This document shows positions 27,467 through 43,525 of a stretch of DNA of 64,000 nt, in pieces. The stretch covers positions 2,989,001 to 3,053,000 of the forward strand of contig JAQISU010000033.1 in NCBI GenBank assembly GCA_029339505.1, in the 5' to 3' direction. How positions within the stretch are numbered: the stretch's first letter is position 1; each line of letters begins with the position of its first letter. The notes below the pieces were generated by a model, which did not search any database, was not told the DNA's origin, and was given only the letters and a program-made list of their open reading frames with translations. The stretch comes from Unio delphinus. Lineage: Eukaryota > Mollusca > Bivalvia > Unionida > Unionidae. A program made the position numbers and the translations under genes.

Positions 27467-27468
27467 GC

Positions 27469-27664
27469 AGCAGAGAGGGTGAATCCTACAACATTTTTTG
27501 TTTTTATTTTTGATTATACCCCCTCCAAATAACACTAGACCCTTCTCGCGAATAACTAGAAAAAAAATGAGTCTGAAAACATGAGATTCGCATTCGCGAA
27601 TCATAAAATGTCGCAACGTCGTTGTCACTCACCCTCTCTGCTGCTATGGGTTAACCGAATATTT
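27469..27664 (+). repeat. Left inverted terminal repeat of the Polinton
   Basis: 196 bp that matches the reverse complement of 43323-43519 with only scattered differences, starting AGCAGAGAGGGTGAATCC as expected for 5'-AG Polinton ends. The repeat is itself a foldback: its inner edge carries TCACCCTCTCTGCTGCT, the inverse of its outer edge. The stop codon and last codons of the packaging ATPase lie inside it (27651-27664). Confidence 0.93.
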
Positions 27665-28316
27665 TATCAAGTCCGATACGATATCGTGTCCTAGGGTCTG
27701 CTAAATTTATTGTCACAAATCCGTGTGGTTTTGACTGAGCGTGACTAAAGAAATTTCTAAATTGATTATGATTCATATCACCGCTGCACCAGGTCTGATG
27801 AATATTTCGTAGCGTATGAGTATCAACGCCGTTAAATACACACAACACATTGCAGTTATCTCTGATCACTTTTGGTATCTGAGTGTATCGTTGAGTGACA
27901 TAGATCACATCAGTGTTTTTATGCCTGCCTCGGGAAAATATTCTAGCAGGATTTTTTTGATTATCTAACATGATATCATCGTATACCACTAAATTGTTAA
28001 TACTTCCATCAATAGCATCAATGCTCGGGGCTTCCTCTATATCAGTAATAAACTCAATAAAATCTTCATCGATTTGAAATTCTTTTGCTTTCTCGTTAAA
28101 ATCCTTTAGCACTTCATAGCATCGCTGATCGTCTACACTCGGGGCTATTAAATACAATTTGTTCCATTTCATCCATCTCGTTATCAAATTAAGTAGCAGT
28201 TGTGTCTTTCCGCTTCCAGATGGTCCGATTATAATCATTCTAATTGAATTCGGCAACATTTCATGATGTTTAATAGGTTCCCTTCGTCGGGTAGCTGAAT
28301 AATCAATTATATTCAT
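27651..28316 (-). CDS. A32/FtsK-HerA-type DNA packaging ATPase
   Basis: 221 aa, full length for the Polinton/NCLDV A32 family. It is expected to pump the element's DNA into preformed capsids using ATP. Walker A is GPSGSGKT (residues 31-38), Walker B is LVVYDD (about 109-114), and a VTQRY sensor segment follows near residue 140. The start codon is 17 bp from the divergent zinc-ribbon/PLA2 start. The last codons and stop fall inside the left terminal repeat, so the right end carries a mirror copy of that tail with no gene attached. No frame break is seen. Confidence 0.93.
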   Translation of the reverse strand: MNIIDYSATRRREPIKHHEMLPNSIRMIIIGPSGSGKTQLLLNLITRWMKWNKLYLIAPSVDDQRCYEVLKDFNEKAKEFQIDEDFIEFITDIEEAPSIDAIDGSINNLVVYDDIMLDNQKNPARIFSRGRHKNTDVIYVTQRYTQIPKVIRDNCNVLCVFNGVDTHTLRNIHQTWCSGDMNHNQFRNFFSHAQSKPHGFVTINLADPRTRYRIGLDKIFG

Positions 28317-28333
28317 GCCGTTATATATAAATT
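28317..28333. promoter_or_regulatory. 17-bp divergent promoter gap with TATA-like core
   Basis: The whole distance between the ATPase and zinc-ribbon/PLA2 start codons is GCCGTTATATATAAATT. It contains TTATATATAA, which reads as a TATA-like element on both strands. Any promoter here must either use very short leaders or lie within the opposite gene. Confidence 0.45.
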
Positions 28334-28531
28334 ATGGATCTATATTGTGTGAAGTGTAAAAAACGTACTGGCACAGATGACTTGACGACGATTACAACTA
28401 AAAATAACCGATCAGCGCTTTCTGGTAAATGCGTACAATGTAGTACAAAGAAGTTTAGATTTGTTTCTAAACCCAAGGAACTCAAGGAACCTTTAAAAAA
28501 AAACGAGGAGGTGATATCGCAGCCAAGCTAA
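28334..28531 (+). CDS. Zinc-ribbon N-terminal part of the broken zinc-ribbon/PLA2 gene
   Basis: A 65-aa frame with two CxxC pairs (residues 5-8 and 33-36), a small treble-clef/zinc-ribbon, followed by a lysine-rich linker. The frame ends in a nine-A run (28495-28503). Beyond it a different frame continues with a glycine and lysine rich linker, and after a six-A run (28543-28548) a third frame holds the phospholipase A2 domain. It is most simply the first segment of one protein of about 170-180 aa with the PLA2 segment listed next. Alone, it could be a separate small zinc protein. Confidence 0.7.
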   Translation: MDLYCVKCKKRTGTDDLTTITTKNNRSALSGKCVQCSTKKFRFVSKPKELKEPLKKNEEVISQPS

Positions 28532-28542
28532 CTAAACTCCCT

Positions 28543-28865
28543 AAAAAACCCCATGGGCAAAATACCCTGGAGAAAAGCACCTTCCAGGATATAGCTACTG
28601 TGGACCGGGAACAAGACTTGATATCAGACTCAATGATCAAAATCAGCCCCGACCCGGTGAGGAACCAATAAACGCAATTGATAAGGCCTGTCACCTTCAT
28701 GATGTATCTTATAAAAGCAGTAATCTGCAGCACAGGCATCTAGCAGATGTGAAATTAATTCATGCGTTAAATGCTATTTCTGATAAATCTTTCAAAGAAA
28801 AATTGGCTTCCTTTTTGATAAAATCGGCTATGAAAAGTAAATTGATGTTAGGTGCTGGTAATTAA
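28543..28865 (+). pseudogene. Parvovirus-type phospholipase A2 domain (frame-broken)
   Basis: An open frame without its own start codon, ending at TAA 28863-28865. It has the calcium-binding loop YCGPGT (28596-28613) and, about 28 residues later, the catalytic CHLHDVSY segment (His-Asp codons 28698-28703). This order and spacing match the PLA2 domain of parvovirus VP1, which hydrolyses phospholipids during endosomal escape. A helical tail follows, rich in Leu and Lys. In virions of this kind it would be exposed during entry, which is inference from the parvovirus case. It is separated from the upstream zinc ribbon by two A-run frame breaks. The integrase start codon follows 8 bases after the stop. 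Confidence 0.82.
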
Positions 28866-28872
28866 TAACAAC

Positions 28873-29823
28873 ATGGAATCTATTTATTATTCCCCAAGAG
28901 GATACTGGAGGGGTAAATCAGCAATCCATAAACTCGCTAGCGCTGCAAAAGTGAAAAAAACCCCTGCGGCTCATTGGTTATCCAAACAGGCACTATGGAA
29001 AATTTATCTACCACCGCCTAAACAAATTCAATTCTCGCATTTTGATGTGACAGTTCCTAATGAAGTTCATCAGGCTGATCTATTATTTCTGCCACATGAT
29101 CGTGGTTACAAATACGCATTAACCGTAGTTGATATTGCAAGTCGATACAAAGAAGCAGAACCGTTAAAAACAAAATCAGCCACTGAAGTGGCTTCTGCAT
29201 TTGAAAGGATTTATCGAAGGAGTCCTCTGCACTGGCCAAATCTATTACAAATTGATCCGGGCAAGGAATTTCAGGGTGCAGTGTTATCAATAATGAAAAA
29301 TCATAAAGTCACTATCAGACGAGGACATACTGCGCTACATCGTGATCAGGCCATTGTAGAACGGTTTAATAAAACCCTTGCTGAGCGGTTATTTGGATAT
29401 CAATACGCAAAAGAATTCATCCAAGAAAAAAGATCCCGTGAATGGGTTAAAAGGTTACCAGCTGTGATTACTGCACTGAATAACGAGATTACTAGAACCA
29501 TCAACATGAAACCTATCAACGCGATTAAAAAGAAGTCGATACCTGAAAAACCACAAAAGGATTTTAGCGTTTCCCAACCAATTCTTGGTAGTAATGTCAT
29601 TGTGAGGTACTTATACGAACCAGGAGAGCTTGAGGGTGGCACAAAAAGGGCTACTGATCCTATTTGGAGTGTTACTGCACACAAGATATCTAGTATAACA
29701 CGATCTACGGGTAGACCTCCAATCTATAAACTGGATTCAACTGCCCCTCAACGGGGTTTTACTAGACAACAATTACAAGTGATACCTGAGGATACTCAAT
29801 TACCACCGCATGGGCTTAACTAG
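28873..29823 (+). CDS. Retroviral-type (rve, DD35E) integrase
   Basis: Inserts the linear element into host DNA. The frame opens at a GTG at 28852, but the first ATG (28873) gives the conserved Polinton start MESIYYSPRGYWRG. Protein of 316 aa with an N-terminal helical segment (about 1-50), an RNase H-fold core with D69 (in HQADLLFLP), D128 (LQIDPGKEF) and E163 (QAIVERFNKTL), spaced D-58-D-34-E, and a C-terminal SH3/chromo-like region (about 240-310). All three catalytic residues are present and the frame is intact. Its stop overlaps the stop of the convergent HNH segment: TTAACTAG (29816-29823) serves both strands. Confidence 0.95.
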   Translation: MESIYYSPRGYWRGKSAIHKLASAAKVKKTPAAHWLSKQALWKIYLPPPKQIQFSHFDVTVPNEVHQADLLFLPHDRGYKYALTVVDIASRYKEAEPLKTKSATEVASAFERIYRRSPLHWPNLLQIDPGKEFQGAVLSIMKNHKVTIRRGHTALHRDQAIVERFNKTLAERLFGYQYAKEFIQEKRSREWVKRLPAVITALNNEITRTINMKPINAIKKKSIPEKPQKDFSVSQPILGSNVIVRYLYEPGELEGGTKRATDPIWSVTAHKISSITRSTGRPPIYKLDSTAPQRGFTRQQLQVIPEDTQLPPHGLN

Positions 29824-30031
29824 CACCCTTGCGTCTATTGCACTCAAGACAAGTCAACATCACATTATTTCTGACATGACCGAGATTGTTATTTTTTCTG
29901 TCAACGGTGATTTGGCGAGGATCCTTATCCGAATACTGCCAACGCATTATACAATTGCAACTTGCGCAGTGATTATTTTGTTGTTGCTTCAAAGTGATTA
30001 TTAATTCAGCATCAATATCAAATTCTCGTTG
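29816..30031 (-). pseudogene. HNH endonuclease domain, C-terminal part of the replicase (frame-broken)
   Basis: Past the stop of the helicase frame, an adjacent frame stays open to TAA at 29816-29818. It encodes a compact HNH nuclease: a first CxxC zinc pair (CASC, about 29956-29967), TVDRKNNNLGH with the catalytic-type Asp-Arg and His, NNVMLTC and a second CxxC (CLEC, 29840-29851) ending NRRKGAS. This frame joins the lysine-rich end of the helicase frame at an 11-T run on the plus strand (30032-30042), so the nuclease is most simply the C-terminus of the same protein. It has no good start codon of its own. Possible roles are processing of termini, recombination or a homing-type activity. Confidence 0.78.
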
Positions 30032-30777
30032 TTTTTTTTTTTGTCTTGTTGTTTGTAACCGGAGAGTTTTTTATCAATAATATCATTATCATCGCCAATG
30101 ATTTCATCATCGCCACTGGCTTCGCCAACGACAATTCTTCGAAGTTGATTTATTTTTCGTACTCTAGACACTGCGAGATAGACTAAATTCGACCATTCTA
30201 TGCGATTATCTACCATCCAAACAATTGTATCCGATATAGTCAATCCCTGTGAAGAGTGTATTGTTGCTGCATAACCTAGCGTCCATGGGGATTTATTAGC
30301 ACGCAATGCATCTTCAACAACATTCATATCAACCAGCATAATATCATTTAATACGAGAATCTTCTTTTCACGCCCTGACTCTGTCAGGCCTGGAATATCA
30401 ACTTCGATGTTCTGTTTTCGTGTATCCGATGGCCTATAACAGAGGGGCACTGGAAGTGTTGCAAATTTTTGTTTATGCAATTCAAATAACTTCATCTGAA
30501 GTGTGTCCCTGACTATTTTTCTACTTGCAATGATTAAATCATTTGGTCTCCACGCTTCCCAAAACTCATTCATGGGAGTTTCTGAAATTATTTCACGCGC
30601 TATTTCACACTGGATTTTATCCGGTTGTAATCTAATTAGTTTCTTAAATTCTTTTAATTCATTGTCAAGTGATCTATGATCGGTATCAATTTCTTCATAA
30701 TAGTCTACAAAACCCTTTAGCCATTCATGGGGGGATGCACCGACAAATGGTGGTGGTTGCCCGTGATCACCGCACAT
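30001..30777 (-). CDS. SF1 helicase C-terminal half (replicase, second segment)
   Basis: 258 aa opening at the motif III segment MCGDHGQPPPF, then motif IV-V regions and YAATIHSSQGLTISD with YLAVSRV (motifs V-VI of Pif1/RecD/UvrD-like helicases). It overlaps the end of the polymerase/helicase frame by 11 bp in another register. Walker A and B lie in the upstream frame, so neither half could work alone; this is one helicase split at a five-T run (plus strand 30784-30788). The tail is acidic then lysine-rich and ends just after an 11-T run, with the HNH frame beyond. The in-frame ATG at the start of the motif may be coincidental. Confidence 0.85.
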   Translation of the reverse strand: MCGDHGQPPPFVGASPHEWLKGFVDYYEEIDTDHRSLDNELKEFKKLIRLQPDKIQCEIAREIISETPMNEFWEAWRPNDLIIASRKIVRDTLQMKLFELHKQKFATLPVPLCYRPSDTRKQNIEVDIPGLTESGREKKILVLNDIMLVDMNVVEDALRANKSPWTLGYAATIHSSQGLTISDTIVWMVDNRIEWSNLVYLAVSRVRKINQLRRIVVGEASGDDEIIGDDNDIIDKKLSGYKQQDKKKNNENLILMLN

Positions 30778-33280
30778 GACGACTTTTTAATAACAACCAC
30801 TCAAGAAATATTTTTAAGACATCTTCGGACACTGTGTCTATTTCGTCCCACATGATGAATTCAGGGATAAATTTCTCTCCCATGCGCTCAGGAGTCCATT
30901 TATCTCCCTTCCATCTAAAGAAACTATGATAAGTGCAGGCATTTACCCCTCTCTGTATCATTTCTCTTGCAAGTCTGTGAGTCGGTGTTAGTACAATCAT
31001 GTTTGGATTGGAAACACGAAATAACTCAATTACCCGGGTTGTTTTTCCTGACCCACCACAGCCGTTTAAATAAACTGTTTTATACAGGCATATTGGATCA
31101 GAAATCGGTGGTGCACTAGAAAATTCTGAACACTGATTGCTTTCTAAGTAATTATTTTCAATGGTAACATCTGCTGATGGAATATAATCATGAAGCATTT
31201 CTTTCTTAATTCTCCATGACCCCCAATTCTCGTTGCCAGTAGCCTTAAAATCAGCCATTTTGCTATTTATGTAAAATGAGTCAGTAGCAACTCTAACTGC
31301 GGTGGTAGGAAATCTATTGATCATTGAAAAAAAATTAATAGAAGCATAACCAAGCATAGAAGCTCTCAAAGGTGTGTACTGCGGATTGTATCCATCAGTG
31401 TAAATAACAATTGTACCCAATTTGGTTCCATCGGACATAAATGCGTCCTTACGATTGACATATAGGCCCCTATTCGTTAAATCCATAATTACAAAATCGT
31501 ATTCAGCATTGTCTATAATCAATCGTGAAGAATATCTCGTATTATCATCTTTACCACCTTGGGTAAATTTACCGATTATTCTTCGTCCAAGGTCTTTTGC
31601 TTCATTGTTTCTGATTTCAAATAACTGTTGGGACCAATCCATGATTTGTTGTTCACTGAAATTTGGAAACAGTTTTCGCTCTTCGCTAATTATTTTTTCT
31701 AGATCAGGTTGTGGTAACCAGACTGATTTCTGTGCTCGATAGGATATAATTGCTTCACTGACAATTAATGATTTTAACATCTTACAATCAAGCATATACC
31801 GTAATAACACTATTGGCATCCAGTGTTTTTCAGACATGTGTTTACCAATCCAAAGATAACTACACGGATGAAGTCCTTCAGCCATTTCAAATGATACTAC
31901 ACAAGCGAATCCGGTCAAATCGAAATGTGGCAGTGGTCCATTAATAGCAACACGGGTCATTTCGTGTGTAGGGTGTCCAAATCGTTTGAAATATTTCTCG
32001 CATTCTCCATACCCAAGAAAACTTCCTGGATAACACGCAATCATATCAACGGAAATAACGGTATCAGCGGTGTATTTTGTATTCCATAATCCTCCATGGC
32101 CGTATTCAAGACAAGACAATTTGACATCTGATAAGAACTCACTTCGGGTTGGTTTCCACGCGTTTTTCTTTCTAGCAAAATGTGCTGCAACTGATGGAAG
32201 TGTAAAACAGTTTGCTAATAATTGATCGTTGTCTTCCCCTTCCCCAGAAAACTCACTAGCTAGTTGTTTCATTTGATTATGCAGCTCTTCAGTACGGTAC
32301 AATTCTCCGTTGGGCCTTACAAACTGATCAAATCTACATTCTTCGTCTGAAGTACTATGAAATAGCCACATTGACACGGGATCGTTTTTACTCAAATGAT
32401 AAATAGCATCAAATAATTTCTGCTCTGAAAAAAACTCTTCGGTTCCAAACAGAGTTTGGGATAGATATTTTACGGTTCTATCCCGTGGGAATATTGTTAC
32501 TGCAGATGACCACGCGTGTTCGTTATGATCAATAATCTGTATTGGGGTTCCATTTTTATTATATTTCGATTCGTATAATACTTCTCCGGTGATTGTCCTT
32601 ACCGATATTGGAAATCTCAATGATGTTTCTAATTTGGCTATATCTTGAATTGTTGCCCCATGCTGTTTCACTGTCAGTTCCCATTCGGTTATTTTTTTTC
32701 GTCTTAGATCAGTTAGTTTATTTCCCCGGGACGCATTTGTGAAGTGTTCTATTATTCGTGTTGCTACACAATTGAGCCCTGTCGAATATTTCATGGGTGC
32801 TAGTTTTGAAATATCAGGTTTTTCATTGAGCGGATAGATCCCGTAAACAACTGCTGTGACAGGATAAGATCTTTCGTAGTAGGGTTTATCAAGTCCAGTC
32901 AAAATTCCTGGTTTTGAATCCTGATTCACAGTGACAGTTTTTTTGCCCTTAAGAATAGGCTCGTATTTGTCCCTAATGATCCATTTTCCATTATCACGGA
33001 TAAGGAATTTTATTCGAAAAAAATTTCTTTCTTCCCCAAGACGTGAGATTATCACTGCTGCTTTTTCATCATTCATGGTAGCGTCAACAACACCATCAAT
33101 TCGAAATGTTGACCAACAATGAGCTGCCCCATCACGCTTGAATTCATTAAAACAGTCTCTGATTTTACTAATCAAGGTTCTATCAAGAATTTTATTCTTT
33201 GGTGTATCAGAAACTCTATCAAGATTGAATTGAACACTTTTCCAGGGCTTAATTTTCGATAATCTCTCGAACTCCTCCAT
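30767..33280 (-). CDS. Family B DNA polymerase fused to SF1 helicase N-terminal half
   Basis: 837 aa replicase. The polymerase region includes motif A (SVDMIACYPGSFLGYGE, residues about 409-425, aspartate in the DxxxxYPS position), a motif B-like lysine segment (RIIGKFTQGG, about 567-576, with ASMLGYASINF near 640-650) and motif C (ATDSFY, 665-670). I see no clear 3'-5' exonuclease motif set in the first 390 residues, and the polymerase part is shorter than usual protein-primed Polinton polymerases. From residue 735 a helicase begins with Walker A (GCGGSGKTT, about 740-748), a TPTHRLA segment (765-771) and Walker B (IMWDEID, 809-815). The frame then ends in an off-register tail. The start is 24 bp from the divergent cysteine-rich gene. 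A polymerase joined to a helicase is unusual for Polintons. Confidence 0.93.
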   Translation of the reverse strand: MEEFERLSKIKPWKSVQFNLDRVSDTPKNKILDRTLISKIRDCFNEFKRDGAAHCWSTFRIDGVVDATMNDEKAAVIISRLGEERNFFRIKFLIRDNGKWIIRDKYEPILKGKKTVTVNQDSKPGILTGLDKPYYERSYPVTAVVYGIYPLNEKPDISKLAPMKYSTGLNCVATRIIEHFTNASRGNKLTDLRRKKITEWELTVKQHGATIQDIAKLETSLRFPISVRTITGEVLYESKYNKNGTPIQIIDHNEHAWSSAVTIFPRDRTVKYLSQTLFGTEEFFSEQKLFDAIYHLSKNDPVSMWLFHSTSDEECRFDQFVRPNGELYRTEELHNQMKQLASEFSGEGEDNDQLLANCFTLPSVAAHFARKKNAWKPTRSEFLSDVKLSCLEYGHGGLWNTKYTADTVISVDMIACYPGSFLGYGECEKYFKRFGHPTHEMTRVAINGPLPHFDLTGFACVVSFEMAEGLHPCSYLWIGKHMSEKHWMPIVLLRYMLDCKMLKSLIVSEAIISYRAQKSVWLPQPDLEKIISEERKLFPNFSEQQIMDWSQQLFEIRNNEAKDLGRRIIGKFTQGGKDDNTRYSSRLIIDNAEYDFVIMDLTNRGLYVNRKDAFMSDGTKLGTIVIYTDGYNPQYTPLRASMLGYASINFFSMINRFPTTAVRVATDSFYINSKMADFKATGNENWGSWRIKKEMLHDYIPSADVTIENNYLESNQCSEFSSAPPISDPICLYKTVYLNGCGGSGKTTRVIELFRVSNPNMIVLTPTHRLAREMIQRGVNACTYHSFFRWKGDKWTPERMGEKFIPEFIMWDEIDTVSEDVLKIFLEWLLLKSRHVR

Positions 33281-33304
33281 ACTATAATTAAAACAAGTAT
33301 TTAA
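33281..33304. promoter_or_regulatory. Short divergent gap between replicase and zinc protein
   Basis: Only 24 bp (ACTATAATTAAAACAAGTAT then TTAA) separate the two start codons; it contains TATAATTAAAA. As at 28317-28333, the element packs divergent starts around a TA-rich core. Confidence 0.35.
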
Positions 33305-33646
33305 ATGAAAGATTTAAGTATAATGAATCATTGCAAATGGCTTATGATTGGATCAGTGACACCGTGTAACAAATCATGCAGAAATGAATTCTGTTGGTAT
33401 CATATGCAAAGCTTTCGTCGTGGAAGCCTTGGTCCGTTACCCTGTATTCGATGTGGGGTTGGGGTCAGGGGGAAGTCGCAATTATGTCTTATGTGTGGCG
33501 GCAAAAGATACAGGGAACTAAAACGCTATTATGATAAAAGAATAAAAAATACTGTCATTGACCCCAACGATGACAAAATCATAAAGACTCCTCAAGATTA
33601 TATACAGAGACTTATAATTAAACCAAACAATGAATTAGAAAAATAG
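33305..33646 (+). CDS. Cysteine-rich zinc-binding protein, followed by an in-frame 45-codon extension
   Basis: 113 aa with paired zinc ligands: C10, C21, C25, C30 and H33, then CxxC pairs C47/C50 and C61/C64, resembling two linked zinc ribbons or a TRASH/FCS-like finger. The internal ATG at 33323 (MNHC) is an alternative start. The TAG stop at 33644-33646 is followed in the same frame by 45 sense codons ending at TAG 33782-33784, with coding-like composition (segment NRRLKNPVGFVVFDQ). Either the first TAG is a nonsense change, or it is read through. I do not recognise a precise family; a role in nucleic-acid binding or early regulation is a guess from its place beside the replicase. Confidence 0.7.
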   Translation: MKDLSIMNHCKWLMIGSVTPCNKSCRNEFCWYHMQSFRRGSLGPLPCIRCGVGVRGKSQLCLMCGGKRYRELKRYYDKRIKNTVIDPNDDKIIKTPQDYIQRLIIKPNNELEK

Positions 33647-34690
33647 TGTTATTATACAAATGAACCAAGAATTCAGACCTCACCCGTGCTTGTTAATTAT
33701 GAAGCATTCCGTAATGGTATTATCAGAAACCGCAGATTGAAGAATCCAGTTGGATTTGTGGTATTTGATCAGTCAGATAGATAGATTAATATGTGAACAT
33801 TTAATGTTCTCTGTAGGTGTTGAATGATAACTTAATTCTTGAATAATAGAATCAAGGATGGTTATATTGATTCCAATTCTCAGAATAATTCTTTACCATT
33901 TCAAAAGAGACAGGACAAAAAATTCGATTTTCGTATGTCTATAACACCAAGAGAGACAACTCTTAAATATAACCAATGGATATAACCAAGGGAGTTATCA
34001 TTGTGATTTAGCGGCTGGGTATTGTTTTATAGGAAAAGAAATATTTTCTTTTTTTTTAGTGTTTAAGTCAAATATTCTGTCTCACGTGCGATTAATGCGT
34101 ATTTCATAAACATAGGATGTGATCCGGAGATGCAGGCGTTACAGGATAACACACGTGTATACTTTTTCCCTTAGTTTGTGTTAACTTGTTTTATGGGTTA
34201 TTGCGATTCAGCGGCTGGGCATTGTTTTGTAAGAAAAGAAATGTTTTCAAACAATTATATTCTTTGTTTTAGTGTTTAAGTCAAATATGCTGTCTCATTT
34301 AAATACTGTGAAACACCATTAATAAGTAATTCAAGAAAATAAAATAGCATACCTTGCGGATTGCTGTATTAATTCCCTTTATATACTCTCTCCCTTAGAT
34401 GGTGTCGGGTTGATAAGGGAGGGAATAACAACCCCTCCCACCTTAAAAATTACATTACAGTATGGCGTGGGTTATTTCCCCCTAAATTGTGATTCAGCGG
34501 CTTGGGCTATAATTAATTAGAAAAGAAATCAAATATAAAATGTTTTCAAACGATTATATTCTTTTTTTTAGTGCTTTATGCAAATATTCTGTCTCATTTA
34601 AATACTGTGAAGCACCATTAACAAGTAATTCAAGAAAAGAAAATAACACACTCTGTTGATTGACGCTGCTGTATTAGTCACCTTATATAC

Positions 34691-34865
34691 TAAATGAAAG
34701 GTTTAAAGCTGGGGCTTTCAAAGGCCAATCCGACCAGTCAAAAAATAACCCACGCCATTGACACGTGTGCGTGGTTGACTTTTACTCAATCATGCAACCG
34801 GGTTTAATTTCATGGGTTGCTTTGATTGGTCGAATTGGCCTTTGAAAATCAGCCCCGTCGTTTCA
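34691..34865. repeat. About 175-bp imperfect inverted repeat (foldback)
   Basis: ATGAAAGGTTTAAAGCTGGG-GCTTTCAAAGGCCAATCCGA on the left pairs with TCGAATTGGCCTTTGAAAAT-CAGCCCCGTCGTTTCAT on the right. The centre includes GACACGTGTGCG. CCAAT-type boxes occur in both arms. It could be a regulatory hairpin or a nested MITE. Confidence 0.8.
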
Positions 34866-34919
34866 TGTTTGATATGTCTGTGCCGTCCCATCATCATTAC
34901 ATCATCATTGAATTATAAT

Positions 34920-35095
34920 CCACCCTTAATTAAGTTAATTAAGTATATGTATACCTACAATCTGAATGGAGATATATACGGTATTTGTGCTGTCCTTAAT
35001 TAAGTTAATTAAGTATATGTATACCTACAATTTGCCACAACACTCGAGTGGAAATATATACGGTATTTGTGCTATCCTTAATTAAGTATATGTTG
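34920..35095 (+). repeat. Direct repeat with TTAATTAAG core
   Basis: CCTTAATTAAGTTAATTAAG followed by TATATGTATACCTACAAT occurs twice, with a shortened third start. Each is followed by GAAATATATACGGTATTTGTGCT-like sequence. Confidence 0.85.
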
Positions 35096-35589
35096 TGACG
35101 TCACCCCAAGCATATCTTCTGGGCGGTCTAAGATGGCGTTTGCCACGTTAGGCCTCCCTTCCGGAGATGTATGTTTCGGGTTTCCTTTGGGCTTACTTGG
35201 ATGTGAAGGCAACCAAGGAGTTCCAAAGATGTGTTGTCGTATATATGTAACCTCTAGGTCATTTCACGTAAACATACCCTCTTGTGATTCTAACCCGTTA
35301 TTTGACGAGTTAGATTCACTCTTAGGGGAATATATTTCCGGTGAATGTAAATATAAATGACCTAAAATAAATAACATCCATGGATGTAATTAGCTCTCCG
35401 TCACATTTGGGTAGCCCCGTATGGTGTTCAAAAATGAATTACCGGCCAAATAGTGTCAAATCGAGATCGAAGAAATCTCAGAAAAAAAATGGAAATACTC
35501 ATAGAAAGAACCCTATGAAAGACACAGTGGCCTATATCAAGGGGGCCAAATGACTGATAACCGCTCATCATGGTTGTTATTTATTTTTG

Positions 35590-35765
35590 TCTGCATTTAT
35601 ATTTATATATACAGACTGAATTTTAAAAAAGATAGTTATATATACAGACTGAATTTTTAAAAAAGATATTTATATACAGACTGAATTTTTAAAAAAGATA
35701 TTTATATATACAGACTGAATTTTTAAAAAAGATATTTATATATACAAACTGAATTTTTAAAATAT
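35590..35765 (+). repeat. 34-36 bp tandem repeat, five copies
   Basis: Unit TATATATACAGACTGAATTT followed by TTAAAAAAGATATT. It ends about 50 bp before the next gene, so it could act as an upstream promoter array. Confidence 0.9.
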
Positions 35766-35816
35766 TAACGGCTCTTTTATTTTTGAAAAATGAATTAGAA
35801 ATATGTATTATCATAT

Positions 35817-36173
35817 ATGAATTCTGAAAATATGAATAGCATCATAGTTGAAATTGGAAAATTGAAAAATCAGGATATTAAATTGTCAGATGGGTTAAAT
35901 CCTGATCAAATCAAGTCGGATTTTCAGGATATAGAATACGGAGTTAGCACTAACAAGTATATGTTACCAAAGAAATATGCACTCATCAAAAAAATTCAAA
36001 ATTCTATTCGAGACTCTCTTGCATTTTCCAGTGAAGTAGGTGTGCTTGTTCCGTTATATACTATCGTGGAAGGAATACGAAAAGAATTGGGTAACGAATA
36101 TGAATTGAAAAAGGAAGTTAATTCTAAAATTAGAAACTTACGAGCGTTAATTCAAGAAAATGAACTATTTTGA
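35817..36173 (+). CDS. Hypothetical Polinton protein, 118 aa
   Basis: First gene of the rightward block. It is charged and mainly helical by composition, with segments YALIKKIQNSIRDSLAF and LKKEVNSKIRNLRALIQ that look like amphipathic helices. No cysteines, no membrane segment and no family recognised. A near-start ATG at 35832 is an alternative. The gene is followed by two stem-loops (36207-36225 and 36255-36273). Confidence 0.55.
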   Translation: MNSENMNSIIVEIGKLKNQDIKLSDGLNPDQIKSDFQDIEYGVSTNKYMLPKKYALIKKIQNSIRDSLAFSSEVGVLVPLYTIVEGIRKELGNEYELKKEVNSKIRNLRALIQENELF

Positions 36174-36206
36174 TTGACCGACCCTCAAAAGATTTTGTCA
36201 GACAGT

Positions 36207-36273
36207 AAAATCTCCTTGAGATTTTCATTTTTTTTGTCATTTTTTGATTGAATCAGTGAAAATATTTCACACT
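36207..36273 (+). terminator. Two stem-loops after the 118-aa gene
   Basis: AAAATCTCCTTGAGATTTT (36207-36225) is followed by a T-rich stretch (TTTTTTTT from 36229), and AGTGAAAATATTTCACACT (36255-36273) has a 7 bp stem. Similar hairpins follow other genes of this block. A role in 3'-end formation is inference. Confidence 0.5.
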
Positions 36274-36369
36274 GCGAAAATAAAATAGAATCCTAACTTT
36301 TAAGAACTTTTTCCCATGTAAAATCGACTACTTGACCCTACGAGGTTTTTTGATGAAAATCGATGAAAA

Positions 36370-37026
36370 ATGACCAAACATCACTGAAAACTAGATGCAA
36401 TTAAGAAATTTATACCAATTCGTGACTCTGTCAGGAATAAACTGCAACAACGACAGAGTTTACAAACTGATTTTGCTCTGGGGTCTGAAGAATTGTTTAA
36501 ACCAGTAACCACAGCAACGAAGGGCGTAGAGCGTGCTTTACTGGGAGATGGTCCCGAGACGGGAAAATCTGTTATTGGTGAACTTGAAAAACTAGCAGCG
36601 AAAACTGAACAAACTGAAAAAACTGATCCGAAAAAAACGACTGTTTCTCTGTTGAATAAATTTACTGATCATGCTAAAATATTAATAAAAAAACCTAGTT
36701 TATTGAAATCAAAGGATTATCAAGCCTTTGGTAATTTTGCTGCTCAAAGTTATAATTCAGAAAAAGATTTTTTAAAGGACGAGTATAAAAATGATAGAAT
36801 ATCAAGTAATGATTGGTTCGATTATTTGTATAAACTAAATAAAGGGATTGGTCGTTTGAATAAGGATGAGATAGGATACAAGGAATTTAAAAAGGGAATT
36901 AGTAATTATAAAAGAGAACAAATAGAAGAGCGACAACGAGAAATAGAAGAACGGCAAGAACTAAAACGTCAAACACCAACACGTAGACAAACAAGAAGAC
37001 AAAAAAAAACAACAACTACCACCTGA
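36370..37026 (+). pseudogene. Charged virion-block protein, N-terminal part (stop-interrupted)
   Basis: The open frame is free of stops from 36388 to 37026 but contains no ATG in its first 100 bases. An in-frame ATG at 36370 is cut off after five codons by TGA (36385-36387). From 36493 the protein reads FKPVTTATKGVERALLGDG, then a lysine-rich helical middle (LLNKFTDHAKILIKK, NDWFDYLYKLNKGIGRLNKDE) and an Arg/Gln/Glu-rich tail. The frame ends after a nine-A run (37001-37009). The following 110-aa frame repeats the tail wording (a second QTPTRRQ-coding block), so 36370-37380 is probably one gene with breaks. Function unknown; core-protein-like composition. Confidence 0.6.
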
Positions 37027-37047
37027 TGATGATGATTTAGAAGAACG

Positions 37048-37380
37048 ATGTCAAACACCAACACGGAGACAAAAAAACAAGAAGACCCTAATGATGATTA
37101 TTTACAAGAAACGGATTTAGAAAAACTAGATGAAGCAGCTGGTTATAGCGGAAGTGGACTGCAAAATCCAAGGATTGGAAACACTTGTCCTGATAGTGTT
37201 ATCAATGATATATCACGATTAGATGTTCTTGTAGGAGGATTCCGAGCTGGAAATAACTCGCCAGAAATAATTAATGAAGCAGCTGATATCTGTAGACGGT
37301 TATTTGCCGGCGGTATCATGGATATCAAAACATATCGAGATTTCATTGACGAGTTAGCAAATGGGTATCATAGTGATTAA
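37048..37380 (+). CDS. C-terminal part of the charged virion-block protein
   Basis: 110 aa acidic at first (EDPNDDYLQETDLEKLDEAA), then a glycine-containing hinge and a helical end (SVINDISRLDVLVGGFRAG, EIINEAADICRRLFAGG). The first codons lie in DNA that duplicates 36968-37000, and a seven-A run (37071-37077) marks a probable second frame shift relative to the upstream segment. It could be an independent small gene, but the repeated tail coding and close spacing favour one protein. No family recognised. Confidence 0.6.
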   Translation: MSNTNTETKKQEDPNDDYLQETDLEKLDEAAGYSGSGLQNPRIGNTCPDSVINDISRLDVLVGGFRAGNNSPEIINEAADICRRLFAGGIMDIKTYRDFIDELANGYHSD

Positions 37381-37382
37381 AT

Positions 37383-37404
37383 AACAATTGAAAACACTAT
37401 TGTT
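37383..37404 (+). terminator. Stem-loop after the 110-aa frame
   Basis: AACAAT (37383-37388) pairs with ATTGTT (37399-37404), followed by TTTATA. It begins only two bases after the stop codon. Confidence 0.5.
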
Positions 37405-37413
37405 TTTATAATA

Positions 37414-37845
37414 ATGATCATCCATTACAATCATGATAAACCAACCCTCGTCTATGTAGTTAATTCACGGTTTCCAGTTTATAAAGCATACTATGGAGAT
37501 GGCCTCGGCAATACCATTTTAGGATTCTTTTCAAGAATGGCCCCAAAAGTGATGCCGTTAGCTAAACAATTATCAATGAAAGCCATTGATGTTATTCGTG
37601 ATAAGGGTATTAGTACTGTTGGAGATCTTACCGGGAAAGCGTTTTCAACTGCGAAGGATAAAATAACATCATTAGTGAGGCGAAAAAAGAAACCGTTACC
37701 GTCTACAGAAGAAATGCCTGCAAGTGTTAGTAAAATTATAAATAACGCAGTAGATGAAAAACTAGCGTCGATGGTAAATCAAGGAGACCAAAGCAATATT
37801 GCAAATATGATAGCGGGAAGTGGCTTTAGAAAACTACGTCGATGA
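37414..37845 (+). CDS. pVI/pX-like minor virion protein (putative)
   Basis: 143 aa directly upstream of the capsid gene. After a short N-terminus comes a glycine-hydrophobic amphipathic segment (YGDGLGNTILGFFSRMAPKV, about residues 27-46), then helices (AKQLSMKAIDVIRDKG) and a basic KRKK-type linker, ending GSGFRKLRR. The pattern of GLG-aromatic helix, long helical middle and Arg/Lys-rich end is seen in adenovirus pVI/pX-like and Polinton capsid-associated proteins, whose helices disrupt membranes or bind DNA. The assignment is by pattern and position, not clear homology. The stop codon starts an inverted repeat (37843-37861). Confidence 0.6.
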   Translation: MIIHYNHDKPTLVYVVNSRFPVYKAYYGDGLGNTILGFFSRMAPKVMPLAKQLSMKAIDVIRDKGISTVGDLTGKAFSTAKDKITSLVRRKKKPLPSTEEMPASVSKIINNAVDEKLASMVNQGDQSNIANMIAGSGFRKLRR

Positions 37846-37861
37846 AATCCTACGGATTTTC
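37843..37861 (+). terminator. Stem-loop overlapping a stop codon
   Basis: TGAAATCCTACGGATTTTCA starts with the TGA stop of the preceding gene. AAATCC (37845-37850) pairs with GGATTT (37854-37859). A second short palindrome CGCTAGCG follows. Confidence 0.5.
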
Positions 37862-37917
37862 ACGCTAGCGTTTTTCACGATGAAAATCACGATTTAGACT
37901 CTGATAAATAGAATAAA

Positions 37918-39387
37918 ATGTTCAAAAGGTCACCTGATCCAGCATTTGATATGGATGCCCCAGTTGGCAAGAATGATTCTGTACGCGATTTTCAATTTTA
38001 TTCTTATCACGCAGTGCAACCAGATCTCCGATCGCGAATTGAACTTCAAGTTCATGATACCAGTAAATATTTTCTACCGTGTGAGGCATTCATTGAAGTA
38101 GAAGGAGAACTTGTAACAAATGATGCTGCACATAATGATCCACCATATGACATTAACTCAAATGTCCGAGTTGGTTTTGTTAATAACGGCATCATGGCGT
38201 TATTTGAAAGCGCTAGATATCTCATTGATGTAAAAGAAATTAAATCCATTGACCGTGAAGTTGATATGGCCACAACAATCATAGGGTTAGCAAGATATTC
38301 TGATGATTATTCAAGATCAGCGGGTCCATCTATGATGTTTGCAAAGGATACCTCTGATAACGCTGATCACCTTCAATTCATTAAAGTGTTAACAGCACTG
38401 GGTACTGCAGAAGGCAATCAACAAGAAGCAGCTAATCCAGAACGTCGAACTAGACCCGCAGCTGCGTTTGATATTCTCGGAGGCGTTAATGGTAATCTCA
38501 ATTTAGGATTTGCAACACGCGTAGCAACGTTGCATGGGCAGCGTCGACGATTTTCATGTGCGATTCCACTGCATCATATATTTGGATTCTGTAGAAACGT
38601 CCGAAAAGTTATTTATGGAGCGAAGCATACAGTAGCACTTGTACGAAAGGGTACTGATGATGATGCAATCTGGCGTAATGCTGGGGTTGCTCCCGGTAAA
38701 GTCATTTTAACAAAACTATCATTATGGATGCCAGTGTTAACTCCATCAATCACAGAAGAACAGCGACTACTATCATTTATGGATCAAGGAGGAAAGTCGT
38801 TGTTGAGTTGGTTATCAGTGACTACGGATATTAAACTGGGTAATGTTGATGGTACATTCACATGGCACCTGGCATCAAAACAAGGGGTTTCAGCTCCACG
38901 TCATATATTTATTGCGTTACAGAATGCTGCGCGAGTTGGTAATCAAGAACGAAGTCATATGATATTTGATCAGTTAGGTGTTAATGAAGTCTCGCTGAGA
39001 ATAAACGGACAGCAGGAACCATCCGAGGATATACAACTTGATTACGGTCAGAATCATATTGCACGTGTCTATCATAACCTGTTGTCATTTATGGCACGTG
39101 ATCAAAATGTGGATACCGGTTTGCAAATATCACAATTGGATTTTAAAAGCCTCTATCCGATTTATTACTTTTCATTGGAACATCTTGATTTGATGAGACA
39201 ATCTGTCGTTGATATACACTTTAGAGCCCGTGTAACCCGTCCGACTGGTGCACCAGTTGCTGGGGTACATCCTATCCTTATCCCGAATTATAGAGCGGTT
39301 GCTGTCATTCTCAGTGATAAATCAATGTTACTTGAAGGTGTTGGTGGAAGAATGAGAGTGGTAGATGCCCCAGTAGAAAACATGTAA
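37918..39387 (+). CDS. Major capsid protein, double jelly-roll
   Basis: 489 aa, intact, the central gene of the virion block and the main shell protein of the PRD1-adenovirus lineage. Recognisable features are an N-terminal segment RDFQFYSYHAV, a proline-cysteine PLHHIFGFC block followed by KVIYGAKHTVALVRK (about residues 217-245), alternating beta-strand patterns throughout and a conserved IDREVDM/arginine-rich middle. The protein has no signal peptide or membrane segment. It is expected to form trimeric capsomers; assembly would need the protease and the penton-like protein in the same block. Its start has ATAAATAGAATAAA just upstream, a TATA-like run. Length and order fit Polinton capsid genes. 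Confidence 0.92.
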   Translation: MFKRSPDPAFDMDAPVGKNDSVRDFQFYSYHAVQPDLRSRIELQVHDTSKYFLPCEAFIEVEGELVTNDAAHNDPPYDINSNVRVGFVNNGIMALFESARYLIDVKEIKSIDREVDMATTIIGLARYSDDYSRSAGPSMMFAKDTSDNADHLQFIKVLTALGTAEGNQQEAANPERRTRPAAAFDILGGVNGNLNLGFATRVATLHGQRRRFSCAIPLHHIFGFCRNVRKVIYGAKHTVALVRKGTDDDAIWRNAGVAPGKVILTKLSLWMPVLTPSITEEQRLLSFMDQGGKSLLSWLSVTTDIKLGNVDGTFTWHLASKQGVSAPRHIFIALQNAARVGNQERSHMIFDQLGVNEVSLRINGQQEPSEDIQLDYGQNHIARVYHNLLSFMARDQNVDTGLQISQLDFKSLYPIYYFSLEHLDLMRQSVVDIHFRARVTRPTGAPVAGVHPILIPNYRAVAVILSDKSMLLEGVGGRMRVVDAPVENM

Positions 39388-39390
39388 TTG

Positions 39391-39432
39391 AAAATCCGAA
39401 GGATATTTCCATTGAATCGTTTTACGATTTAG
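39391..39432 (+). terminator. Stem-loops after the capsid gene
   Basis: AAATCCGAAGGATATTT (39392-39408) and AATCGTTTTACGATT (39414-39428) are two consecutive inverted repeats in the 64 bp gap before the next gene. Confidence 0.45.
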
Positions 39433-39451
39433 AATCAATCTATTATGTATA

Positions 39452-39862
39452 ATGTCATATAGTGTTATTAGTGTTACGTTAACTCCTGGTCAAATCAAAA
39501 AATTGCAATCAGAATCGGCTAAAAAATGTGGAACCACAATCACGTTGAAACCTAATCAAATGACTGGTGGTGCAAATAAATTATCGCTGACAACTCGTCA
39601 GGTGAAACATTTCAATGATGCTTTCAAGGATAAAAAAGGTGTTCAGATTACTCTTTCTGCGGCTGCTATCAAAAATATGATTAAAACAGGCGGTATATTT
39701 CCATTGTTAGCTGCAATACCAGCATTGATTGCAGCAGCAGCCCCAGCGGTGGCTAAAGCAGCGGCGTTAGGAGCCGTTAGTACTGCAGGAGGAATGGCGT
39801 TGAAAAAGGCAGCTGGACAAGGATATAAAAAAAGAGACGATCCGTTCACGGATTGGGTCTAA
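39452..39862 (+). CDS. Membrane-active minor virion protein with GG-hydrophobic segment
   Basis: 136 aa. The first two thirds carry a thrice-repeated short pattern, visible as SVTLTPGQIKKL, KLSLTTRQVKHF and QITLSAAAIKNM, each a small beta-turn-helix unit. Then come GGIFPLLAAIPALIAAAAPA (residues about 81-100), an Ala-rich hydrophobic helix after a double glycine, and a lysine-rich end. Proteins with this arrangement are common in Polinton virion blocks and resemble adenovirus pX/pVI in the GG-hydrophobic part. A membrane or vertex role is inference. The stop codon lies inside the first unit of the 45 bp tandem repeat shared with the protease start. Confidence 0.7.
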   Translation: MSYSVISVTLTPGQIKKLQSESAKKCGTTITLKPNQMTGGANKLSLTTRQVKHFNDAFKDKKGVQITLSAAAIKNMIKTGGIFPLLAAIPALIAAAAPAVAKAAALGAVSTAGGMALKKAAGQGYKKRDDPFTDWV

Positions 39863-39985
39863 GACTACCAGGAACCCCGTATTCATGGTACAGCGGAAAA
39901 GGTCTAAGACTACCAGGAACCCCGTATTCATGGTACAGCGGGAGATCCGTTCACGGATCAGGCCTGAGACTACCAGGAACGGTTT
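39856..39985 (+). repeat. 45-bp tandem duplication at the junction of two genes
   Basis: GGTCTAAGACTACCAGGAAC followed by CCCGTATTCATGGTACAGCGG occurs at 39856-39900 and 39901-39941. A shortened third copy (GAGACTACCAGGAACGG) ends near 39981, and GATCCGTTCACGGAT occurs both before (39839-39853) and within (39945-39959). The duplication supplies the stop of one gene and the start codon plus repeated basic N-terminus of the next. Confidence 0.9.
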
Positions 39986-40481
39986 ATTAATTCAGAAATC
40001 TTCAATTTCCGAACCTATGGTTCCCAAATCTTCGATGGTTCCAATGTCCAATTTTGATTTAATGGATGCGGCTAAAAAACTAGTGATTAAAAATTTCAGA
40101 GGTGTTTTTATGAAAGATCAATTACCACATCAACCAAACAAAACTGAAACAGGTATTATTAATCTCGATAACAGCACCGGACCTGGAACTCACTGGGTTG
40201 CATACGCTATTGATCCACGTGGGATTGTCTATTTTGATTCATATGGATTAGCCCCACCAAAAGAGTTTATGCGTTATATAAAAACCCTTCCAATGAAGAC
40301 TTGGTATTCTACGCTACCAACACAACAAATCAATGACCCACCAATATGCGGCAGTGAAGTATTAAATGTCCTTGATGCTATTTCTAACTCCTTGGGTAAC
40401 CCAAGGGGGAAACCACCTCATATTGTCGTAAATGACTACACCAGCAATCGCTTTTTAGAGAGAGAAAGAGTTTTACAATAA
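39885..40481 (+). CDS. Adenain-like (C5/Ulp1 fold) maturation protease
   Basis: 198 aa cysteine protease expected to trim capsid and core precursors. The catalytic order is visible: H103 in GTHWVAYA, D118 in VYFDSYG, Q148 in TQQIND (oxyanion) and C155 in PICGSEV. The first 55 residues are basic, low in structure and internally repeated because of the 45 bp tandem duplication. The core begins near SNFDLMDAAKK (about 55), so a start at the second ATG (39930) or at MVPMSN (about 40032) is possible. The frame is intact. The next start codon follows after a single base, suggesting co-transcription or coupled translation. Confidence 0.9.
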   Translation: MVQRKRSKTTRNPVFMVQREIRSRIRPETTRNGLLIQKSSISEPMVPKSSMVPMSNFDLMDAAKKLVIKNFRGVFMKDQLPHQPNKTETGIINLDNSTGPGTHWVAYAIDPRGIVYFDSYGLAPPKEFMRYIKTLPMKTWYSTLPTQQINDPPICGSEVLNVLDAISNSLGNPRGKPPHIVVNDYTSNRFLERERVLQ

Positions 40482-40482
40482 C

Positions 40483-41430: not shown

Positions 41431-41459
41431 TTGAAAACGATAGCGTATTTAAAATAAAA

Positions 41460-41962
41460 ATGATTTCATCATCGCAATATCGCTATGATCAGGTCAGAGA
41501 GTATCAAACTAGACTCAAAACCTTGTCTGAGGAGTATGCAATGAAAATTAAAAAATATAGCAGGAGAATTACCGCAATTGATGTTACTGTGTACGCTGTG
41601 AGTGGTGTAATCACCGGAGCCGGTATTATACTGTCTTCAGTGACAATGATGGCTCCGATAGCTGTTCCAATTTGCATTTCTGCGGCAACAACAATCGCTG
41701 GAATTATTTCAATAATCACAAAAAAATATCCTCATGCAGCCAACGGAAACTACAAGACTACATAATTCAATTTCATGTTGTGTCCACTGCATACTCGCAA
41801 TTATCCTCATTGATATCGTCATCGCTCGATGATACAATTATATCAGAGAGTGAGTTTTCAGCGATGGTAGATATATATGATTCTGCGATGTCAAAATTAG
41901 AAGTACAAAAACATGAGTATAATAACAATGACAACACAGATGGAATTACTTCAACAAATAGT
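41460..41962 (+). pseudogene. Two-helix membrane protein of the Polinton virion block (one frame break)
   Basis: The first frame (41460-41765, 101 aa) has an N-terminal charged helix (VREYQTRLKTLSEEYAMKI), then two hydrophobic segments (about AIDVTVYAVSGVITGAGII and MAPIAVPICISAATTIAGII). At a seven-A run (41720-41726) the frame changes. The continuation in the overlapping frame (from 41727) has a soluble helical end with SQLSSLISSSLDDTIISESEFSA, a pattern I recognise from many invertebrate Polinton hypothetical proteins (two membrane helices plus an acidic SxxEF end). The overlapping frame runs on to 42106, but its last part covers the start of the next gene and is probably not protein. A role in an internal membrane or entry is unproven. 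Confidence 0.65.
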
Positions 41963-43277
41963 GGAGACCACAAACCCAGTACAAACAAGCATGATCTCAA
42001 TAACCTCAACGAATCCAGAATTCAGTGTGAATTTCCCCTCTCCGGTCCCAGTGAAGGAGATAGCGCTAGCAAAATTACGAGTATACCACAGTTGGCCAAA
42101 TATTAGGTCAAAATCATTTGGTGGTCAACAACCCAATAATTCACTGGTATTTGCAAATAAGAATAAACCCGACGGTACCCCAGACTGGAATGTTGTTTCC
42201 ATACCAACCGGATCATATCAAATTGAACAAATCAATGATGAATTCGCGCGTAGAATAAAATCGATTACTGGAGTAGAGTCAAAAATAGCTATAACAGTTC
42301 ATGTGCCGACACTATCATCTGCCATTGAAATAAGCACAGAAGGATACGTCGTAGATATCTATCAGAGTTCTATTAGAACCGTACTAGGATGGCCTGAATT
42401 ACCACCCGGTGGAAAAACCGTTAAATTACCAGAACCACAAAAAACTGATTATATCACCGACAGGAAAAAATCTGATAATCCAGTAAAGAGTTATAGAGAT
42501 TATGACAAATTGAATTTTTTCACTGAAAAGATAGATAAGGGAGGGGAGAAATACTACATAACTCGACAGGATAAAATCACTGAAAACTTCACAGCATTCA
42601 ATAACGATATTTCGTTGTTGTTAATATCCCTTAAATCCGGCTCTCTCACCCGAGATGAATTTATCAGCGTCATAGAAACATGTAACAGAATCCTCAGTGA
42701 CATTTATATATTTCATTCACTAATTATACGAGAGGTAGCCCTTGCCAGACACCCTAACACGAAAATAGAATTTACGACAAAATATCATATAAGCGTAGAA
42801 AATATTTCCGAATTCAATCTACCAGGATATAATCTCTTAGAACTACAAAAATCTCTCAGTGATGCCATCGATGAAGGTTTCAAAAAAATCCATGATACGT
42901 GGAAAAAAACAGCATCACCGGAAATAAAAATCCTCAAACATAATAATGACCCAGATGGTGGTGGCAGGCATATTGCTCCGTTCAATGTGAATATTTCAAC
43001 GGTGATTGCGCTCAATTTAGTATGTGATGTGATCGAAGGAAGCTATCAAATAAATTTAGAGCGATCAAATCAAGCTCAGCAGGGATATATTTTGTATTCA
43101 TTTGCACCAACAGCTCCTCCAGGGTTTTTAATAATTGAGTCCCCGGTGAATCCAGTCTATATGCGATGTCATAATAATTCATTAACCAGAATTAATTTCA
43201 AACTCACTGACCAGTCTAATAATCTGATTGATTTACAAGAGGAGGTTTTACAAATTAGTCTGTTTGTAAAGTCCTAA
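41913..43277 (+). CDS. Probable penton/minor capsid (vertex) protein
   Basis: 454 aa, intact, last gene of the block. The N-terminal part (EFSVNFPSPVPVKEIALAKL, then VYHSWPNI and PTGSYQIEQINDEF) and the far C-terminal part (INFKLTDQSNNLIDLQEEVL) match a protein type found throughout animal Polintons. A less conserved helical insertion with a charged YITDRKKSDN segment and a DEF-containing helix lies between (about 180-330). By elimination (capsid, protease and ATPase are assigned) and by its beta-rich ends it is my candidate for the single-jelly-roll vertex protein. ATG at 41928 is an alternative start. Its stop TAA is at the centre of the palindrome GTCCTAAGGAC. Confidence 0.65.
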   Translation: MSIITMTTQMELLQQIVETTNPVQTSMISITSTNPEFSVNFPSPVPVKEIALAKLRVYHSWPNIRSKSFGGQQPNNSLVFANKNKPDGTPDWNVVSIPTGSYQIEQINDEFARRIKSITGVESKIAITVHVPTLSSAIEISTEGYVVDIYQSSIRTVLGWPELPPGGKTVKLPEPQKTDYITDRKKSDNPVKSYRDYDKLNFFTEKIDKGGEKYYITRQDKITENFTAFNNDISLLLISLKSGSLTRDEFISVIETCNRILSDIYIFHSLIIREVALARHPNTKIEFTTKYHISVENISEFNLPGYNLLELQKSLSDAIDEGFKKIHDTWKKTASPEIKILKHNNDPDGGGRHIAPFNVNISTVIALNLVCDVIEGSYQINLERSNQAQQGYILYSFAPTAPPGFLIIESPVNPVYMRCHNNSLTRINFKLTDQSNNLIDLQEEVLQISLFVKS

Positions 43278-43298: not shown

Positions 43299-43322
43299 TT
43301 TCGTCGTAGTAAGGACTAGATC

Positions 43323-43519
43323 AAATATTCGGTTAACCCATAGCAGCAGAGAGGGTGAGTGACAACGACGTTGCGACATCAACGAAAACGCGAATGCGAA
43401 TCTCATGTTTTCAGACTCATTTTTTTTCCTAGTTATTCGCGAGAAGGGTCTAGTGTTATTTGGAGGGGGTATAATCAAAAATAAAAACAAAAAATGTTGT
43501 AGGATTCACCCTCTCTGCT
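43323..43519 (-). repeat. Right inverted terminal repeat of the Polinton
   Basis: 197 bp inverted match to 27469-27664. The one region of real difference is a short segment near 43378-43390 (TCAACGAAAACG here versus TTTATGATTCG in the inverted left copy). It ends GGATTCACCCTCTCTGCT, the exact inverse of the left terminus, followed by GAAGCA. Confidence 0.93.
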
Positions 43520-43525
43520 GAAGCA

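What the first reader, a model, noticed from the sequence alone, without database searches (positions are those of the whole stretch)
29816..33280. Polinton replicase that joins a family B polymerase, an SF1 helicase and an HNH nuclease
Seen directly: polymerase motifs A and C, then Walker A and B in one frame, helicase motifs III-VI in the adjoining frame, and an HNH zinc nuclease in a third, all collinear on the minus strand and separated only at T-runs (30784-30788 and 30032-30042). Known Polinton polymerases are protein-primed PolBs with an exonuclease domain and no helicase partner in most lineages. Here I see no clear exonuclease motifs, and the element seems to carry its own unwinding and nicking/processing activities in one polypeptide of about 1150 residues. 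I have an unverified impression that similar joined proteins occur in other eukaryotic genomes, so novelty needs a search.
Basis: partly seen in the sequence, partly recalled or inferred. Interest (0 to 1): 0.9.

Follow-up and report, generated by a model that had tools for sequence, protein, structure and literature searches.

The report
Polymerase-helicase-nuclease replicase of Polinton-like element
A virus-like mobile element in an animal genome carries a replication gene that combines a DNA polymerase, a DNA-unwinding motor and a DNA-cutting domain; the design is already known from relatives in single-celled organisms, and here its close relatives turn up in sea slugs and soil fungi.

Summary
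Inside a 16-kb Polinton-like element (inverted repeats 27468-27674 and 43313-43520; A32 ATPase, retroviral-type integrase, double-jelly-roll capsid, adenain-like protease) the minus strand carries, in order, a polymerase, an SF1 helicase and an HNH domain, in three frames broken at two A-runs. Relatives show one protein: of 14 proteins of 1000 aa or more found with the polymerase ORF alone, 13 run on through the helicase into the HNH; the other ends before it. A model of an intact relative matches phi29 protein-primed polymerase and then Pif1/RecD2 helicases; no exonuclease domain is recognisable. The N-terminus has a conserved Cys and His and a weak OTU-protease match. This is the published layout of Tlr1-like helicases (pPolB-S1H fusions with C-terminal HNH or GIY-YIG), so the architecture is not new. 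What the passages I could read do not report is the range: the whole fusion in Elysia sea slugs and Glomeromycotina, its polymerase part in a mussel and a coral, and an HNH kept in 38 of 43 long members. Membership rests on architecture and fold; no tree with Tlr1 proteins was possible. The window copy is broken; intact relatives exist.

The parts
27468..27674 (+). left terminal inverted repeat of the element
   Evidence: 197 of 208 alignment columns identical to the reverse complement of 43313-43520, one gap
43313..43520 (-). right terminal inverted repeat; flanking bases AAGCAG (left) and AAGCAT (right) are a candidate 6-bp target-site duplication, 5 of 6 matching
30767..33280 (-). 837-aa ORF: N-terminal domain, OTU-like region (C171, H252), protein-primed PolB palm, helicase Walker A and B
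   Evidence: model of relative P0001:
32516..32770 (-). OTU-protease-like segment from C171 to H252/H255
   Evidence: in 43 proteins of 1000 aa or more, chosen without motifs, Cys 40, first His 40, second His 37 (three gaps each); weak fold match to a tymovirus OTU protease
31277..32047 (-). palm motifs A (DMIACYPGS), B-like (RRIIGKFTQGG), C (VATDS)
30842..31063 (-). helicase Walker A (GCGGSGKTT) to Walker B (WDE)
30767..30788 (-). first frame break, at a five-A run of the coding strand just before helicase motif III
   Evidence: the 13 complete relatives are uninterrupted here
30001..30777 (-). 258-aa ORF: helicase motifs III to VI
30001..30042 (-). second frame break, at an eleven-A run of the coding strand, between motif VI and the HNH
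29816..30034 (-). HNH domain with two Cys pairs; its end overlaps the integrase end tail-to-tail by 8 bp
27651..28316 (-). A32-type packaging ATPase
   Evidence: Pox_A32 E 5.7e-16
28852..29823 (+). retroviral-type (rve) integrase
   Evidence: rve E 2.8e-7, 31.2 bits against a cut-off of 32.6
37918..39387 (+). double-jelly-roll major capsid protein
   Evidence: PF21738 E 2.2e-16
39885..40481 (+). adenain-like cysteine protease
   Evidence: Peptidase_C5 E 0.0032, below cut-off
41913..43277 (+). 454-aa ORF, perhaps the penton/minor capsid protein
   Evidence: ORF only, no family match; identity is a guess from its place

Best explanation
The locus is the replicase gene of an endogenous Polinton-like virus in an animal genome. 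In intact relatives it encodes one protein of about 1050-1370 aa: a variable N-terminal domain, an OTU-like cysteine-protease region, a protein-primed family B polymerase palm without exonuclease, a Pif1/RecD-like SF1 helicase and a C-terminal HNH domain. Most likely mechanism: the N-terminal domain primes synthesis at the inverted-repeat ends, the OTU-like region frees that primer from the polymerase, the palm copies DNA while the fused helicase opens the duplex ahead, and the HNH cuts a branched or nicked replication or integration intermediate. Shown by sequence or model: order and fusion of the parts, polymerase and helicase folds, no recognisable exonuclease, conservation of the key residues. 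Inferred: protein priming, self-cleavage, polymerase activity despite the lost first Asp of motif C, and any role of the HNH. The copy in the window is interrupted twice and as read is not a single gene.
Confidence: 0.82

Rival explanations
1. An independent fusion: the polymerase-helicase join arose separately in this animal/fungal lineage and is not orthologous to Tlr1-like helicases.
For: Independent helicase-polymerase fusions are known (the dinoflagellate OmPLV has the reverse order and an exonuclease). No Tlr1 sequence was in my alignments, and the only structure of a virus discussed with Tlr1-like helicases that is named, Tetraselmis viridis virus S1, is rank 43.
Against: Same domain order, same missing exonuclease and first Asp of motif C, and same C-terminal nuclease position as described for Tlr1-like helicases. 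The best viral-structure match (unnamed, 999 aa) aligns over 1131 columns.
Confidence: 0.15
2. The HNH is a passing homing endonuclease that invaded the gene and has no part in replication.
For: Published view for the nuclease domains at the C-terminus of Tlr1-like helicases (intein invasion); the same place holds HNH or GIY-YIG in different elements.
Against: Among 43 proteins chosen by length alone, 38 keep all eight HNH core residues, in animals and fungi; two of the other five end early and three are fungal gene models with other tails. Some of the 43 were found with queries that contained the HNH, but 13 of 14 found without it have it too. Identity is like the rest (0.67 against 0.74 and 0.73).
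Confidence: 0.3
3. Three separate adjacent genes, or a programmed frameshift product.
For: Three open frames in the window, breaks at A-runs.
Against: Relatives are uninterrupted at both places; the first break would split the helicase between Walker B and motif III.
Confidence: 0.04

Closest known systems
Tlr1-like helicases (pPolB-S1H fusions) of PLVs, the Tlr1 element and transpovirons (PMC11071308: section 10 whole, other parts as passages)
   Same: vOTU-palm-SF1 helicase order, no exonuclease, first Asp of motif C missing, C-terminal HNH or GIY-YIG
   Different: Hosts (sea slugs, Glomeromycotina; polymerase part also in a mussel and a coral) against the PLV, ciliate and giant-virus systems named in the passages; the nuclease is HNH wherever one was recognised here; N-terminal domain not matched
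Tlr1 element of Tetrahymena (passages of PMC4642659, PMC3671162, PMC12721341)
   Same: RVE integrase, packaging ATPase and capsid genes together with the fused SF1 helicase
   Different: GIY-YIG instead of HNH; ciliate host
Canonical Polinton/adintovirus with pPolB
   Same: inverted repeats, RVE integrase, A32 ATPase, DJR capsid, cysteine protease; protein-primed palm; OTU-like region
   Different: canonical pPolB keeps the exonuclease and has no fused helicase
OmPLV Helicase SF1-pPolB of Oxyrrhis marina (PMC12721341, passages)
   Same: SF1 helicase fused to pPolB in a PLV
   Different: reverse order, exonuclease kept, no vOTU found

Membership tests
Tlr1-like helicase (pPolB-S1H) | protein-primed PolB palm with TPR1 and TPR2 | tested here: met
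   best fold match is phi29 polymerase up to its residue 499, a span that holds TPR1 and TPR2 by recalled boundaries; a range gives first and last aligned residue only
Tlr1-like helicase (pPolB-S1H) | exonuclease domain absent | tested here: met
   only 157 residues lie between H255 and the motif A Asp, where phi29 has 249 residues before its motif A Asp (recalled), so a whole exonuclease does not fit at its usual place; of five phi29 alignments two start at 180-184, two at 122 and one at 99, with 0-20 more residues in the earlier-starting ones; a simple Exo I pattern found nothing in the first 430 residues of 3 proteins; looser Exo II and III patterns gave scattered hits
Tlr1-like helicase (pPolB-S1H) | C-terminal SF1 helicase in the same protein | tested here: met
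Tlr1-like helicase (pPolB-S1H) | first Asp of motif C missing, second kept | tested here: met
   first position Ala 40, Thr 1, Cys 1, gap 1; second Asp 42, gap 1, of 43
Tlr1-like helicase (pPolB-S1H) | OTU-like cysteine protease next to the palm | tested here: inconclusive
Tlr1-like helicase (pPolB-S1H) | C-terminal HNH or GIY-YIG | tested here: met
Tlr1-like helicase (pPolB-S1H) | groups with Tlr1, PLV and transpoviron proteins in trees | not tested
   no such named sequence was retrieved
Polinton/Maverick element | terminal inverted repeats and 6-bp target-site duplication | tested here: inconclusive
   repeats clear; duplication matches 5 of 6
Polinton/Maverick element | RVE integrase, A32 ATPase, DJR capsid, cysteine protease | tested here: met
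   integrase and protease score below their Pfam cut-offs
Polinton/Maverick element | canonical pPolB with exonuclease and no fused helicase | tested here: not met
   the only polymerase found is the fused one; the largest other ORFs of the element are 489, 454 and 323 aa. Hence 'Polinton-like'
HNH endonuclease | Cys pairs and HNH-family similarity | tested here: met
   7 of 15 pieces match Pfam HNH, best 1.9e-4; PacI best solved relative, E 0.0035
HNH endonuclease | canonical DH general base | tested here: not met
   DR in 52 of 52; Arg 38, Ile 2, Asn 1, gap 2, of 43. PacI also shows DR (alignment)

The most novel reading that the evidence does not exclude
Animals and arbuscular mycorrhizal fungi host a lineage of Polinton-like viruses whose replicase is an exonuclease-less pPolB-SF1 helicase in which an endonuclease-VII/PacI-like HNH, with Arg in place of the usual His, has become a fixed working part of replication, for example by cutting branched or terminal intermediates, and is not a homing parasite.
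Probability: 0.4. Interest if true: 0.6.

Novelty: new member of a known kind. Interest (0 to 1): 0.4.

Why it matters
It extends exonuclease-less polymerase-helicase replicases, described for PLVs, Tlr1 and transpovirons, to Polinton-like elements of sea slugs and Glomeromycotina, and probably of other animals, which blurs the line between animal Polintons and PLVs. Intact proteins would let the proposed trade of exonuclease for helicase, the activity of a palm lacking the first motif C Asp, and the role of the HNH be tested.

Tried and rejected
Four viral-contig scans (alignments A1 and A4, the capsid protein, the ATPase) gave no confirmed relative. The genome-contig scan gave one locus, L001, 3152 bases, from an archaeal MAG, with a frame-broken relative; I read it as eukaryotic contamination and used it no further. 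The window's own genome could not be searched. PDB by sequence gave nothing below E 0.2 for the 837-aa ORF and weak Pif1-family matches (best E 0.014) for the 258-aa ORF. Foldseek of the N-terminal model gave no match below E 0.1, so a terminal-protein fold was neither found nor excluded. Tree: fungal and animal labels each need 2 changes on 41 rows (29 rows without label), so single origins are neither shown nor excluded; the Rhizophagus irregularis row has a very long branch. Rejected: separate genes; programmed frameshift; a new kind of replicase.

Selection effects. In one search the 35 proteins were chosen by patterns that contain the OTU-like Cys and the HNH residues, so those counts were partly built in; I therefore recounted on 43 proteins chosen by length only and use that count. 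The 14 typed pieces were chosen by an HNH pattern, so most of its invariant columns are built in as well. The Mantel test used 33 of 102 proteins, the tree 40 of 102 plus the window ORF (rows over 900 residues cut to the first 900).

Full report
What is there. The element spans about 27468-43520: inverted repeats, 197 of 208 alignment columns identical with one gap, at both ends, with AAGCAG and AAGCAT outside them as a candidate 6-bp duplication (5 of 6). Between them lie an A32-type ATPase (E 5.7e-16), an rve integrase (2.8e-7, just under the cut-off), a double-jelly-roll capsid protein (2.2e-16) and an adenain-like protease (0.0032, below cut-off). The flank holds a TRIM-type gene at 8519-10426 (RING, B-box, NHL), which with the relatives below points to an animal host; the species was not determined.

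The replicase. The minus strand reads polymerase motifs and Walker A and B in one 837-aa ORF, helicase motifs III to VI in a 258-aa ORF, and an HNH in the third frame. The breaks are at runs of five and eleven A of the coding strand.

One protein. The three pieces match successive parts of P0001, 1168 aa, without interruption (69%, 75% and 93% identity). Searching with the polymerase ORF alone gave 36 proteins; 14 of these have 1000 aa or more, and 13 of the 14 continue through the helicase into the HNH, while P0004 ends before it. Two further searches, whose queries contained helicase and HNH, raised the set to 102. With simple patterns, 36 of 102 carry polymerase motifs A and C, Walker A and motif VI in one frame, and 33 of 36 the HNH, in the same order; the three others are a missed pattern, a truncation and a frame loss. 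The remaining 66 lack at least one of the four patterns; many are short. On the 43 proteins of 1000 aa or more, chosen without any motif, 38 keep all eight HNH core residues.

Hosts. Named in the listings are Elysia crispata and E. marginata (sea slugs), Sinanodonta woodiana (mussel), Desmophyllum pertusum (coral) and the Glomeromycotina Racocetra, Cetraspora, Gigaspora, Diversispora, Ambispora and Rhizophagus; most rows have no name. The whole fusion is seen in Elysia (P0063, P0071), Gigaspora (P0078; some residues in gaps) and Rhizophagus irregularis (P0099, 1328 aa, 28% identity, same HNH at its end). The mussel and coral proteins (561 and 557 aa) show only the polymerase side. Polymerase, helicase and HNH distances correlate (r 0.79-0.88; 33 proteins), as expected if they have travelled together.

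The HNH. Single members match Pfam HNH (7 of 15, best 1.9e-4) and Endonuclease_7 (4 of 15); P0012 matches the PHROG endonuclease VII family at 3.8e-13; the profile's best solved relative is PacI (E 0.0035). The usual DH reads DR in 52 of 52 proteins matched by a pattern that left the second residue free, and PacI too shows DR in the alignment. I recall PacI to be an active nuclease with an unusual active site; that is not from a call. So activity is plausible but open.

What is known. PMC11071308 (section 10 whole, abstract part and passages) describes Tlr1-like helicases of PLVs, Tlr1 and transpovirons as vOTU, pPolB palm with TPR1 and TPR2, SF1 helicase and C-terminal HNH or GIY-YIG, with exonuclease lost and the first Asp of motif C missing; it predicts polymerase activity and reads the nucleases as intein invasions. 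That is this protein's layout. PMC12721341 (passages) describes a reverse-order fusion with exonuclease. PMC10120064 (passages; [quoted passage not shown] PMC12220804 (passages) reports helicase-GIY-YIG and N-terminal HNH-helicase fusions in algal PLVs and related elements. PMC7805220 (passages) mentions an earlier described Polinton of Rhizophagus irregularis and a helicase-bearing element in the fungus Allomyces, so fungal elements as such are not new. PMC11071296 (passages) has a 'HelPol' gene that is unrelated by its description. The 2016 paper that named the fusion, and the adintovirus paper, are not held. In the listings of the paper searches and in passages of eight papers I saw no account of this fusion in animals or Glomeromycotina; with the key paper missing that is a weak statement.

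Judgement. The element is Polinton-like, with the ordinary pPolB replaced by a Tlr1-like replicase. What remains of interest is the animal and fungal range and the kept HNH. On checking, I mended the count of phi29 alignments, the length of the second A-run, the partial state of the mussel and coral proteins and the selection effects; the odds stand.

Noticed in passing
27468-27674 and 43313-43520: Each terminal repeat carries its own first 15 bases again in inverted form (CAGCAGAGAGGGTGA ... TCACCCTCTCTGCTG, at 162-163 of the repeat), so that one arm could fold on itself.
   Followed up: partly
29816-29823: Integrase and HNH reading frames end tail-to-tail with an 8-bp overlap.
   Followed up: no
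33305-33646: Divergent 113-aa ORF with CxxC pairs like a zinc ribbon; no Pfam match.
   Followed up: partly
40642-40836: 93-bp tandem duplication, 98% alike, inside the 315-aa ORF.
   Followed up: no
39856-39941: 45-bp duplication, 100% alike, across the start of the protease ORF.
   Followed up: no
35599-35762: 34-bp AT-rich tandem repeats, 4.9 copies, ahead of the capsid gene cluster.
   Followed up: no
23020-23442: Reverse-transcriptase RNase H fragment of a retroelement beside the element.
   Followed up: no
L001:370-2805: Frame-broken relative of the replicase in an archaeal MAG contig, and P0087 in a Thiodiazotropha MAG: probably eukaryotic contamination.
   Followed up: partly
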